Assembly (NCBI GenBank): GCA_937125455.1
Contig: CAKZLK010000061.1
Coordinates: 51,836-115,835, forward strand
Length of the DNA stretch: 64,000 nucleotides
Reading direction: 5' to 3'
Source: an uncultured Aequorivita sp.
GTDB taxonomy: Bacteria > Bacteroidota > Bacteroidia > Flavobacteriales > Flavobacteriaceae
Made by a program: the position numbers and the translations under genes. The notes beneath the pieces are model-generated. The model worked only from the letters and a program-made list of their open reading frames with translations. It made no database searches and was not told the DNA's origin. Of the stretch, positions 55,086 to 61,587 are shown one piece after another (position 1 is the stretch's first letter; each line of letters opens with the position of its first letter).

Positions 55086-55400
55086 ATGGGAATAAATGCA
55101 ATATTGTATTTATCCACATGTTGTAAAACATTAAGAAAAACGAAGTTGATAAAATCAAAAAATATATCTGATAAGAAATTGAAGTTGGCAACAAAAATCC
55201 TGATTTCTATTTCTGTATTATTTGTGATGCTTCCTTATACAACTTTATTTGGATTGCCATTTTATATAATCGGGTTGATCTTGTTGTGGAATTCAAATCT
55301 GACCAAAAAACTTAAATGGAAATGGACATTTGTTCCATTATTGATTGTTGGACTGATTTATATAATAATCGCATTAATTATTTACATTTTTAAGCTGTAA
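55086..55400 (+). CDS. cassette 1: small TM protein (translation probably starts inside the cassette, e.g. TTG at 55146)
   Basis: Hydrophobic ILISISVLFVMLPYTTLFGLPFYIIGLILLW; cassette termini 55121-55129 / 55486-55494. Confidence 0.5.
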   Translation: MGINAILYLSTCCKTLRKTKLIKSKNISDKKLKLATKILISISVLFVMLPYTTLFGLPFYIIGLILLWNSNLTKKLKWKWTFVPLLIVGLIYIIIALIIYIFKL

Positions 55401-55637
55401 AGTATTGGCATTTGAGGATAAAAAATAACAGAATAAGAAATTAGAAAAATCCGATTCTTATTTACTCAAAGGAAACATAAAAAACGTTTTACAACAACGT
55501 ATAAAAACAATGCTTAAACCTGTCTCAAATCGAAACTCCATGCTCGCTTGCTTAGCGGATTGTCCTGCGGACAATCACGCTCGCCCGCTCGCACTGTTTT
55601 TATACGGGACGTTGCCAGTAATACAAAAAATACTCGA

Positions 55638-56060
55638 ATGACTAAATATCCACATCTGATTTCGATAATATTATCAATAATGGTTTTTAGCCAATGCAAA
55701 GCGCAATCTGAAAATATAACTGACCAATCTAAAAGCACAATAGAAGTTAGAGCTGACATTGCGGAAAAGAAGACTAAATCAAAAATAGAACTCGAAAAAA
55801 CTTATAATGAAAGTGTTAGATTTCTTGACAGTATCGGTAATTCCGATGCAGAGAATTACAAATCATTTCTGATTGACAGCCAAAACGGATGGGAAATTTA
55901 TTGTGAAGGAAAATGCAAAATAATTGAATATCAAAGTAGAGATGGAGCACAAGGAGGTTTACCTTTCTATAATATTTGTATAACTGAACAAAATGATATG
56001 CGAACGACGGAATTAAAAAACTGGATGGCGGAATGGAAACGTGAATTTGAGGATGACTAA
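55638..56060 (+). CDS. cassette 2: lipoprotein with LprI-like (DUF1311) domain
   Basis: MTKYPHLISIILSIMVFSQCKAQ; DSQNGWEIYCEGKCKIIEYQSRDGAQGGLPFYNICITEQNDMRTTELKNW. Confidence 0.65.
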   Translation: MTKYPHLISIILSIMVFSQCKAQSENITDQSKSTIEVRADIAEKKTKSKIELEKTYNESVRFLDSIGNSDAENYKSFLIDSQNGWEIYCEGKCKIIEYQSRDGAQGGLPFYNICITEQNDMRTTELKNWMAEWKREFEDD

Positions 56061-56238
56061 TTGCAATAGCGTGTAGAAGTACTACTGGCAACAATGTATA
56101 ACCGCAATTATGGCGGATTCGACTGCGTCCGAATCCACGCGTAATTGCTAACGTCAGTGCTTAACCGAAAAACATTAACTTTAATCCCGTAACTTCGGTT
56201 ATACTAAACGTTGTGCAACATTGAAAAAAAATTAAGTA

Positions 56239-56946
56239 ATGAGATTTAAAATTGTTTTTTCAATATACTTTGCAATTTTGGTTTCTTGTCAAACACCGAT
56301 AATAATCCAAAATAACAAATCTGACTATTCAACTGAAAGACTCAATAAACAGGCATTAATTAATGCTAAAAATCAAGACAATAAAAATAGATTTGTTAAA
56401 GTAGACACGAGTTACAATCCATTGCATAATAGAGTTGTTAGTGGTCATTATATGGAATTAAACAAAAAAAATAATGAGCGAACTTACATCTCGTGGGGAG
56501 ATACTTACGCCACAAAAAAAGTTTTGAAATCAGGAGATTCAATAATCAGATATTCACATTTTTATGGCAACGGAAATTTAAAATCATCTTATAATAAATT
56601 TGTAGGTAAAATAAATATCGATGAAAATGACAATTTAATATATAATGCAGGATATAATGTTGTGATTGGCAAACTATATGACTATGATGAAGAAGGAAAT
56701 TTAAAGAATATTTATGATTATGACTTTACCTTTTCTATTTTTGATTTGAGGAACTTTTTAGAAAAAAAATATGTAACTGATGCTAACAAAGTTGCGATAA
56801 GACAATTTAGAGATTTCGAAACCCAAGAAATTCTATGGGAGGTTGTTTACGAAGATGATTCTAAAAACTATCCACAATTATTAATTATAGATAGTAAAAC
56901 AGGAAAAGTCCTTGAGAAAAAAGATTATATCGTAAAAGAAATGTGA
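56239..56946 (+). CDS. cassette 3: predicted lipoprotein, unknown function
   Basis: MRFKIVFSIYFAILVSCQTP. Confidence 0.65.
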   Translation: MRFKIVFSIYFAILVSCQTPIIIQNNKSDYSTERLNKQALINAKNQDNKNRFVKVDTSYNPLHNRVVSGHYMELNKKNNERTYISWGDTYATKKVLKSGDSIIRYSHFYGNGNLKSSYNKFVGKINIDENDNLIYNAGYNVVIGKLYDYDEEGNLKNIYDYDFTFSIFDLRNFLEKKYVTDANKVAIRQFRDFETQEILWEVVYEDDSKNYPQLLIIDSKTGKVLEKKDYIVKEM

Positions 56947-57177
56947 GAACAACGTTGCACAACACTGTATAAAAAAAATAGGGCAAGTAAGTGCTAAACC
57001 CAATGTTTTGGCACATTTGCGAGGTCGCCAAATCTTTTGATTTGGCTTTTATAAAAATAATTTAAAACAAAATGCAAAAGATTTGGCTTGTTGATAATCC
57101 GAAAGGTAATTGCCTATTTTCAGCCCTACTTCTTTTATAATAAACGTTGTGCAACATTTGACAAAAACCAAATCTGA

Positions 57178-57522
57178 ATGAGAAAAATTGTAAATCTGAC
57201 CAAACCGAAAGACGGAATTGTGAGACTTATGATTTTTAATGACGATTATGGAACTTACCTATTCGGATATAAAAAAAATGAGGATTGCCGAGCAGAATGG
57301 GACGAATGGTATGAAACGGAATATGATGCATTGGAATCTGTTTTGACAGAATACGGAGTTCAGAAATCGGAATGGAACGAAATTCCAAATCCAGAGCCGA
57401 ACTGTCAACACGATTGGATAAATCCTGTCCGAGTTAAAGGACGTGAAAACGGAAATCCTGAATTCGGAAAACTGGAAAAGCTGATTAACGGAAAATGGAC
57501 AGAGTTTGAGCCGGCTAAATAA
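57178..57522 (+). CDS. cassette 4: hypothetical protein
   Basis: ORF within cassette boundaries 57147-57536. Confidence 0.6.
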   Translation: MRKIVNLTKPKDGIVRLMIFNDDYGTYLFGYKKNEDCRAEWDEWYETEYDALESVLTEYGVQKSEWNEIPNPEPNCQHDWINPVRVKGRENGNPEFGKLEKLINGKWTEFEPAK

Positions 57523-59504: not shown

Positions 59505-59987
59505 ATGAACGTTATTGAGCCAAAATATAAGTATAAAGAAATTGAAAAGGTTTTTGAAAAACTGATTTCGGGCAACGAAGAATTGACTGAACATTTTGTG
59601 AAAGAAGTTGACCTTTCTGATTATAATCAAGAGGATAATATTCCTTATGTTGACATAGGCTCAATTTCAAGATATATTGTTGAAAATAAGCTCAAAAACA
59701 GAACTTCGGACTTCGAACTTTTCTTTAAAAATGTTGAGGAAGTTTATGTGAATGGAGACAGCGATGTTCAGAACTTTATTGTTGTTGGATTATTCGAGGG
59801 AATTCAAAACATTGGTGGAAAGGAAATTGAATATTATCGTTCATTCAATCAATGGCTGAAATCGGAAACACAAAAAGCGTGGAATGGAATAATTGACTAT
59901 TGGGAAGGAACTGAATGGAGAATTCCAAAAGATGAACGCGAAAAAAGAGAAAAGGAAATACAAAAAATACTGAATAAGAAAAAATAA
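59505..59987 (+). CDS. cassette 7: hypothetical protein
   Basis: ORF within cassette boundaries 59487-60000. Confidence 0.6.
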   Translation: MNVIEPKYKYKEIEKVFEKLISGNEELTEHFVKEVDLSDYNQEDNIPYVDIGSISRYIVENKLKNRTSDFELFFKNVEEVYVNGDSDVQNFIVVGLFEGIQNIGGKEIEYYRSFNQWLKSETQKAWNGIIDYWEGTEWRIPKDEREKREKEIQKILNKKK

Positions 59988-60079
59988 AAACTACACACAA
60001 CAACGTGTCCTATGAAAAGCACTAATCCCGTTCTTCAAAAATAATATTTTTATTTTAATTATCTCATAATGATGGATTT

Positions 60080-60290
60080 GGAGTGTTTAAATGTTAGCAA
60101 TCCTTTTCTGTCTGCTGATTGATTGTCAACATTTAAATACTTATAACTTGCTCGGCATCCTATATGTGGTCCATCGTCTAGCGCGGCCACCAGCATCTGT
60201 ATGATTATAAGTTATAATAAACCTGGCCACTTGCTATAAATGTGTGGTCCGTCCGCCTTGGGCGGAGGCCACCTACGGTGTTTTGTGATA
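60080..60290. ncRNA. structured non-coding segment of the IS110-family element, candidate bridge RNA region
   Basis: Hairpins TTTAAATGTT...AACATTTAAA, GTGGTCC...GGCCAC and GTGGTCCGTCCGCCTTGGGCGGAGGCCAC at transposase 3' side. Confidence 0.45.
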
Positions 60291-60335
60291 CAGGTTTGTC
60301 TACTTCTATGTGAGCTTTGTTATCTGTTTATTATA

Positions 60336-61391
60336 TTATTCTATGACTCCTATCGCATAAGGAGTTTCTGTTTTTATGACTGCTAAAGTTCTGCTCAACA
60401 ATTTGCGGGCAATTTTTATGACAATCGTTTTTGAGTTCTTACCTATGTGTTTGCGATAATAGGTCTGCATTATAGGGTCTGTCCTGATGGCCTGCCACGA
60501 AGCTTCTATAAAATAACTTCGCATCAATCTATGGGCACGCATCGTAATTCCCGTGCTCTTTTGGTTGTCCCCACTCTGGTGGATCCCCGGCGCCAGGCCA
60601 ACATAGCCCGCCAAGTGTTTTATACTGTTAAAACGCCTGAGATCTCCAAGCTCGCAAATAATCCCACACGCTACAATCCCACCTATTCCCGGAACACTTT
60701 TTAAAAGATAGTAATCCTTTTTATAATGTTTGCGGCAATAGGCGCGCATCTTGGTGGAGACATCGCGCAGTTCTTGGTCTATGAACCTAAAACTTCGCAT
60801 TCTGCTGTCCAGCGTCTCACGCGCCGGGGGATATGCGAACGCGACTTCGTCCACCCAATCCCGGAATTTATGGCTCCAGTGGTCATTGTCAAATTCCTCC
60901 GGAATGGCAATACCAAAATACAGCAGCTGCATTTTTATAAAACTCTTTATGCGCCTGTAGTCCTTTACAAGGTCATTGCGCCTTCTGAAGAGACTGCGGA
61001 GCTGCTCACGCTCCACGTCCGGAACGTGGATACTCTCAAGCCTGCCATCTTTCAGTTCCCTGCTTATTAACTGGGCGTCTATTTTATCGGTCTTGGTATA
61101 TTTTTCTTTACCCTTGCGATGGATATCAGCAGGATTGACTACTAGGGAAGACCAACCATAAGTTTCAAAACTACGGTGGGCGTAATAGCCGCAACAGCCA
61201 GCTTCATAGGCTGTGGTGACTTCGTGTCCTGAAAAATGTTTCAACACGTATTCCTTTAAAACTTCTGGTTTTGGGGGCATCGCAAAGGACTTGCCGCCGA
61301 ACAGGTCGGTGGCGCAATGAACTTTCCAGCTCCGCTTGTGAATGTCGATGCCAATGTATAACTTTGGTTGGGCAGTGGGTTCTATTTTCAT
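60336..61391 (-). CDS. IS110-family transposase
   Basis: LYIGIDIHKRSWKVHCA, TDKIDAQLISRELKDG, SVPGIGGIVACGIICELGDLRRFNSIKHLAGYVGLAPG. Confidence 0.93.
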   Translation of the reverse strand: MKIEPTAQPKLYIGIDIHKRSWKVHCATDLFGGKSFAMPPKPEVLKEYVLKHFSGHEVTTAYEAGCCGYYAHRSFETYGWSSLVVNPADIHRKGKEKYTKTDKIDAQLISRELKDGRLESIHVPDVEREQLRSLFRRRNDLVKDYRRIKSFIKMQLLYFGIAIPEEFDNDHWSHKFRDWVDEVAFAYPPARETLDSRMRSFRFIDQELRDVSTKMRAYCRKHYKKDYYLLKSVPGIGGIVACGIICELGDLRRFNSIKHLAGYVGLAPGIHQSGDNQKSTGITMRAHRLMRSYFIEASWQAIRTDPIMQTYYRKHIGKNSKTIVIKIARKLLSRTLAVIKTETPYAIGVIE

Positions 61392-61587
61392 ATCTTATTG
61401 TTTTAGAATACTTTAAAGATACGAGACTCGCTGCTTTTTCATAGATGCTATAAGCTATGGCTTGGTCACTCCACACTTGGAAAATCCTGCGGATTTTCCA
61501 ATGCCGGTTTCCATTTGGAGATGTTCGTGCCGAGACACGCCACAGCTCATATACAAAAACGTTACCACACATTTGAAAAAATCACGA

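What the first reader, a model, noticed from the sequence alone, without database searches (positions are those of the whole stretch)
55121..61587. Integron-like cassette array with private complementary termini on every complete cassette
Seen: seven consecutive single-gene units each start with a 9-mer and end with its reverse complement, different between units: TTGTAAAAC/GTTTTACAA; TTGCCAGTA/TACTGGCAA; TTGTGCAAC/GTTGCACAA (twice); TTGGTGGTA/TACCACCAA; TTGTACACA/TGTGTACAA; TTGTGTGTA/TACACACAA. Between them lie palindromic spacers, several sharing CAATGTATAACCGCAATTA...GGATTCG-ACTGCGT-CCGAATCC...TAATTGC...CGGTTATACTAAACG. This is expected if each unit circularises with R'' pairing to R', as in integron attC sites. 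The junction does not match canonical GTTRRRY and no canonical IntI is seen.
Basis: partly seen in the sequence, partly recalled or inferred. Interest (0 to 1): 0.88.

Follow-up and report, generated by a model that had tools for sequence, protein, structure and literature searches.

The report
Unrecognised integron type in Bacteroidota
The window holds a gene-capture array that works like an integron, built around a recombinase lacking the domain thought to define integron enzymes; the same system is widespread in Flavobacteriaceae and I found no published description of it.

Summary
In detail: seven single-gene units at 55121-61561 each start with a private R' (GTT...) and end with its reverse complement R", and attC-like hairpins separate them. 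This is not local. In 205 units from related genomes, 114 have perfectly complementary private termini, against about 1% by random pairing.

The hairpins have R"-L"-L'-R' order and strong covariation. A tyrosine recombinase (53921-55078) sits at the array head, followed 41 bp later by an attI-like site. Identical cassettes occur at different places with breakpoints exactly at TT...G. Window cassette 1 recurs (94%) in a congener, behind another cassette's attC instead of attI. In 20 relatives, 53 attC sites lie downstream of the homologous recombinase on its strand, and none upstream or on the other strand.

Best reading: a chromosomal integron. It fails two usual definitions. R' is GTTR, with only 20 of 285 matching GTTRRRY. 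The recombinase lies outside the IntI clade and lacks the IntI-specific domain, and no gene in 301 family genomes passes the IntI cut-off. Integron surveys filter on that domain, which would explain why the system was overlooked. Recombination on folded single strands is inferred, not shown.

The parts
53921..55078 (+). tyrosine recombinase (385 aa), proposed cassette integrase; catalytic domain about 214-373 with the R-K-H-R-H-Y motifs; extra N-terminal domain 1-116
   Evidence: PF00589 8.7e-40; NF040815 232 bits over cut-off 220, TIGR02249 205 bits below cut-off 265; homologues head attC arrays
55092..55120 (+). attI-like site: dyad ATAAATGCAATATTGTATTTAT (55092-55113), then CCACAT and G^TT with crossover 55120/55121
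   Evidence: same dyad-then-GTT layout after the recombinase stop in dozens of homologues; homology with Aequorivita aurantiaca stops near GTT
55121..55611 (+). cassette 1; R' GTTGTAAAAC at 55120, R" GTTTTACAAC 55486-55495, attC-like site to 55617
   Evidence: 94% copy in congener G642 behind an attC
55612..56210 (+). cassette 2 (LprI-like lipoprotein); attC-like site 56083-56216
   Evidence: 3' end and attC repeated on contig C30 with a different next cassette
56211..57146 (+). cassette 3; long attC-like site 56954-57152 (about 196 bp type)
   Evidence: attC found with other cargo in congeners
57147..57655 (+). cassette 4; attC-like site 57528-57661
57656..58450 (+). cassette 5; attC-like site 58267-58456 with variant L boxes GCTATAA/CATAGC
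   Evidence: 95% copy in congener G656 starting exactly at the R'
58451..59486 (+). cassette 6; attC-like site 59359-59492
59487..61561 (+). cassette 7 (DUF7674 protein); attC-like site 59992-60008 plus 61450-61567, split by the IS
60009..61449 (-). IS110-family element inserted in the L" box of the cassette 7 attC; transposase 60336-61391
   Evidence: NF033542 212 bits; the same IS sits in attC-like sites on contig C44
61562..62016 (+). start of cassette 8 (R' GTTACCACAC at 61561, ORF 61588-62016); no matching R" found in the window

Best explanation
This is a chromosomal integron of a type that standard criteria miss. A Xer/XerA-like tyrosine recombinase at 53921-55078 captures, excises and reshuffles promoter-poor single-gene cassettes. 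Each cassette ends in a roughly 130-nt attC-like site. In the free circle R" lies next to the same cassette's own R', so the site folds into one long imperfect hairpin. The recombinase is proposed to bind the R and L boxes of the folded bottom strand and to cut at G^TTR. It would then join the cassette at the attI-like site just after its own gene, or at another attC. Shown by sequence: array, hairpins, private complementary termini, recombinase and attI position, exact unit of movement. Inferred: that this recombinase is the enzyme, and that a folded single strand is the substrate.
For: 114 of 205 units have 7/7 complementary private termini, against 1% for random pairing and 1/205 for facing boxes. 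The L"/L' and inner stems covary: score 0.478 against 0.129 shuffled, 115 double-sided cells against 33.5, and slid controls collapse. The bottom strand of the circular-form site folds more stably than the top strand in 110 of 111 sites, with an asymmetric unpaired spacer between the R and L stems and often one extrahelical base about ten bases into the L stem. In 20 recombinase loci, 53 attC-like sites lie downstream on the same strand, 0 upstream, 0 on the other strand. attI-like dyad then GTT follows the recombinase stop. Identical cassettes at separate places have breakpoints at TT...G. Window cassette 1 is at attI here and behind an attC in a congener. All 17 family genomes with 10 or more motif copies carry a recombinase homologue, against 201 of 301 overall.
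Against: No recombination was observed. The recombinase lacks the IntI additional domain that literature calls necessary for IntI activity (PMC9668308 citing Messier and Roy 2001). R' departs from GTTRRRY. Some arrays are far from any recombinase found here, and some recombinase loci show no attC nearby (5 of 20, three of them with short downstream sequence).
Confidence: 0.88

Rival explanations
1. Cassettes are real mobile units but move as double-stranded elements with short private terminal inverted repeats, or with circles exchanged as duplex DNA, rather than through folded single strands.
For: The termini do look like short inverted repeats, and the attI-like site is itself a dyad that could be a duplex core site.
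Against: The moved unit includes the hairpin beyond the right-hand repeat (breakpoint after L'-spacer-G), so the repeats are not the element ends. Covarying stems of very variable sequence, and stability biased to one strand, point to a structural substrate.
Confidence: 0.07
2. The arrays are moved in trans by another enzyme (a canonical IntI elsewhere, or host XerC/XerD), and the adjacent recombinase is incidental.
For: Own genome encodes other tyrosine recombinases, and isolated attC-like sites occur away from recombinases.
Against: No gene in 301 family genomes reaches the IntI cut-off, while a true IntI1 scores 507 bits. Position and strand of the recombinase relative to arrays are invariant in the loci tested, and the attI-like site sits in its 3' flank.
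Confidence: 0.04
3. Fixed operon or gene cluster with REP-like intergenic palindromes; the termini are coincidence or terminator structure.
For: Genes are co-oriented (148 of 157 units).
Against: Neighbours change while units stay intact, cargo is highly diverse with 62 Pfam families among 107 proteins, and the private termini are far above chance.
Confidence: 0.01

Closest known systems
Sedentary chromosomal integrons / superintegrons (e.g. Vibrio cholerae, IntI4/VchIntIA)
   Same: Tandem single-gene cassettes, R"-L"-L'-R' hairpins of about 130 nt, private R"/R' complementarity, tyrosine recombinase plus attI at the head, cassettes of mostly unknown function
   Different: Recombinase lacks the IntI insertion (58 residues between the K motif and HxLRH against 100 in IntI1), is outside the IntI clade and usually carries an extra N-terminal domain; R' is GTTR with little match to GTTRRRY; recombinase is transcribed towards the array
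Treponema denticola-type integrons
   Different: Treponema uses a canonical intI gene and IntI-type attC sites; here no IntI
XerA / Xer recombinases (NF040815; PDB 5hxy, 4a8e)
   Same: Best named protein-family match and a top structural match of the recombinase, with the same spacing of catalytic motifs
   Different: Single-copy housekeeping dif recombinases are not linked to cassette arrays; those discussed here head attC arrays
IS1111-attC insertion elements
   Same: A related IS110-type element inserts in the attC-like sites here
   Different: Not part of the system; only shows that the sites are a repeated target

Membership tests
Integron (as a system) | Tandem array of small, mostly single-gene cassettes in one orientation | tested here: met
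   157 complete units, median 720 bp, longest ORF forward in 148
Integron (as a system) | attC: imperfect hairpin with R"-L"-L'-R' boxes, structure conserved more than sequence | tested here: met
Integron (as a system) | R" of a cassette complementary to its own R' (circular form) | tested here: met
Integron (as a system) | R' core GTTRRRY | tested here: not met
   20 of 285 R' boxes match; 276 of 285 are GTTR
Integron (as a system) | Adjacent tyrosine recombinase gene | tested here: met
Integron (as a system) | attI site next to the recombinase where the first cassette joins | tested here: met
   Constant dyad then GTT; different first cassettes at like attI sites; cassette 1 at attI or behind attC. 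Position inferred from sequence only
Integron (as a system) | Cassette is the unit of movement, crossover at G^TT | tested here: met
Integron (as a system) | Recombination of the folded bottom strand | not testable with these tools
   Only folding bias is available
Integron (as a system) | Common promoter Pc at the head of the array | not tested
   -
IntI (integron integrase family) | IntI-specific additional domain near patch III | tested here: not met
   IntI4 2a3v aligns in two pieces, skipping its residues 180-247; TIGR02249 matched in two pieces; motif spacing 58 against 100
IntI (integron integrase family) | Score over the curated IntI model cut-off (TIGR02249, 265 bits) | tested here: not met
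   Window 205 bits, other array-heading recombinases 200-217, IntI1 507
IntI (integron integrase family) | Falls inside the IntI clade | tested here: not met
   IntI forms its own clade, support 100/99; all array recombinases lie outside it. IntI sampling was narrow
Xer / XerA recombinases | Score over NF040815 cut-off (220 bits) | tested here: inconclusive
   Window 232, but other array heads score on both sides of the cut-off

The most novel reading that the evidence does not exclude
Integrons arose at least twice: in Bacteroidota a Xer-like recombinase without the IntI insertion was independently recruited to recombine hairpin attC sites, giving a phylum-wide cassette pool that current integron software does not see.
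Probability: 0.4. Interest if true: 0.93.

Novelty: new variant of a known kind. Interest (0 to 1): 0.86.

Why it matters
The IntI-specific domain is treated as a defining and necessary feature of integron integrases, and integron-detection software filters on it. A working integron without it would show the domain is not needed for the mechanism, make the origin of integrons from Xer-like enzymes testable, and add a large unsurveyed cassette pool (thioredoxins, immunity proteins, abortive-infection and toxin-antitoxin proteins, DNA methylases, many unknowns) in a phylum where integrons are reported as rare.

Tried and rejected
Rfam scan of 53-63 kb found no RNA family. The reversed-motif control excludes base composition as the source of motif counts. 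A fixed operon was rejected because neighbours change. Canonical IntI in trans was rejected. Structural search did not separate XerA from IntI: XerA has the best E-value, IntI4 2a3v the better TM-score, and the model has pTM 0.53. The strict site finder under-calls sites outside the family. IntegronFinder's attC model and HattCI were not available, so the statement that they miss these sites is inference from R' divergence and from the published IntI filter. Literature searches for integrons in Flavobacteriaceae/Bacteroidota found nothing describing this system; preprints and most subscription journals are not in that library.

Full report
OBSERVATION. The seven complementary 9-mer pairs are present at the stated coordinates, and the spacers are palindromic. 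The units run from TT to the G before the next TT. The window is G000:C61:51836-115835 and ends at the contig end. The closest named recombinase, 86% identical, is from Aequorivita aurantiaca, so the host is probably Aequorivita or near it.

NOT CHANCE. I wrote a finder that uses only the AAC/L"/L'/CGTT geometry and not the private bases. In the window plus about 20 fetched stretches from related genomes it found 237 distinct sites after merging duplicates. In 205 consecutive units the seven variable bases of R' and of the unit's own R" match 7/7 in 114 and 6/7 in 33. Random re-pairing gives 1.0% and 2.7%, and the two boxes facing each other across one site match 7/7 once in 205. Many of the poor matches are long units, consistent with sites the strict finder missed.

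THE SITES ARE attC-LIKE. Consensus: nnnCAAC-3 nt-G(T)RTAWn...nTWTAC-spacer-CGTTGnnn, commonly 131-133 nt for the stretch measured. Thirteen stem pairs covary strongly on 45 divergent sites: score 0.478 against 0.129 after shuffling, and sliding partners by 1-3 columns destroys the pairing. The alignment was sequence-based (MAFFT) and the structure is its RNAalifold consensus. With DNA parameters the bottom strand of the circular-form site is more stable than the top strand in 110 of 111 sites. R-box pairing there is by construction, because perfect pairs were selected. An asymmetric unpaired spacer between the R and L stems is common, and a subset shows one extrahelical base about ten bases into the L stem.

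HEAD OF THE ARRAY. The recombinase at 53921-55078 is a PF00589 enzyme. In 20 homologous loci chosen by recombinase alone, 15 have attC-like sites downstream: 53 sites, all on the recombinase strand. None lie upstream and none on the other strand; about 2-3 kb of upstream against up to 9 kb of downstream sequence was available. In many loci a 20-29 bp dyad of variable sequence ends a few bases before the GTT that starts the first cassette, close to the recombinase stop codon. More diverged recombinases (for example G167, G249, G149, G122) lack a clear dyad. Between Aequorivita aurantiaca and the window, and between G143 and G062, homology covers the recombinase and the attI-like region and stops just past GTT, where different first cassettes begin.

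MOVEMENT. In G102 and in G179 identical cassettes (body plus own attC) sit at two places with unrelated neighbours. The identical run begins within 2-4 bp left of TT and ends a few bases into the next R'. Between genomes, cassettes 71-91% identical keep the same private R' in unrelated neighbourhoods, for example G179/G249 with GTTGTAAGTA. Window cassette 1 is 94% identical in congener G642, where it lies behind the attC of another cassette instead of the attI-like site. Window cassette 5 is 95% identical in congener G656, starting exactly at its R'. The 3' end of cassette 2 with its attC is repeated on contig C30, followed by a different cassette.

DISTRIBUTION. The 13-base R"-L" motif occurs in 196 of 301 family genomes, up to 67 times in one genome. 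All 17 genomes with 10 or more copies carry a recombinase homologue, against 201 of 301 overall. A covariance model of the site finds matches in 87 of 349 Bacteroidota genomes from more than 20 families, usually few per genome outside Flavobacteriaceae. In some of those outside families cassette termini still match.

THE ENZYME IS NOT CANONICAL IntI. Window 205 bits and other array heads 200-217 bits against a TIGR02249 cut-off of 265; IntI1 scores 507. No match above the cut-off in 301 family genomes (the tool warns that its controls were silent at that threshold, and the IntI1 score is my positive control). The alignment to IntI4 (2a3v) skips IntI residues 180-247. Spacing between the K motif and HxLRH is 58 residues, against 100 in IntI1 and 60-66 in Xer. 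IntI forms its own clade (100/99) with all array recombinases outside it, though IntI sampling was narrow and the IntI4 row was assembled from the printed alignment, without its insertion. Most array heads in the main clade carry an extra N-terminal domain of about 115 residues, but the 306-aa recombinase heading a G034 array lacks both that domain and the IntI insertion.

NOVELTY. IntegronFinder 2.0 reported one complete integron in Bacteroidetes, in Salinibacter ruber (PMC9024848). The IntI-specific domain is used as a defining filter (PMC9668308). NCBI names many relatives 'site-specific tyrosine recombinase/integron integrase' through the broad XerA model NF040815, which is a label and not a description of arrays. 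My literature searches found no description of this system, within an open-access library only. I file it as a new variant of integron: it meets the system-level features tested and fails the IntI-family features. Whether it is sister to IntI systems or an independent invention is open.

WHAT IS SHOWN AND WHAT IS INFERRED. Shown from sequence: array, site structure, private complementarity, recombinase position, attI-like position, exact mobile unit, distribution. Inferred: that this recombinase acts, that the bottom strand is the substrate, and that cassettes are expressed from a head promoter.

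Noticed in passing
60009-61449; also L034 (G000:C44): An IS110-family element is inserted inside the L" box of attC-like sites (CAACAAYGTRT^CCTATGAAAAGC), the same position in at least two sites of this genome, reminiscent of IS1111-attC elements; its guide RNA may target these sites.
   Followed up: partly
L035 (G000:C50 end, 98000-106360): A second, diverged recombinase (296 aa, 46% identical, no N-terminal extension) is followed by GTTGTGGTGCATTA, the same start as a cassette on contig C30; probably a second integron of this genome cut by the assembly.
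   Followed up: partly
L034 (G000:C44), about 2540-570: Between R' GTTGGGCG and R" CGCCCAAC lies a large unit with a peroxiredoxin-like gene and a LysR-type regulator-like gene (identified by eye), so cassettes may carry more than one gene.
   Followed up: no
window 53921-54268 (protein residues 1-116): Most array-heading recombinases carry an N-terminal domain of about 115 residues, predicted as a small alpha/beta fold, with no Pfam hit at E<=0.01 here; its role is unknown.
   Followed up: partly
L118 (Persicobacter sp. JZB09 plasmid 4): A 45% identical recombinase on a large plasmid has two weaker attC-like matches 5-9 kb downstream on the same strand, a possible plasmid-borne example.
   Followed up: no
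L101 (G034), attC-like sites at 11245 and 19269: Some sites are very short (hairpins of about 55-75 nt) but keep the box geometry, so site length varies as in classical attC.
   Followed up: no
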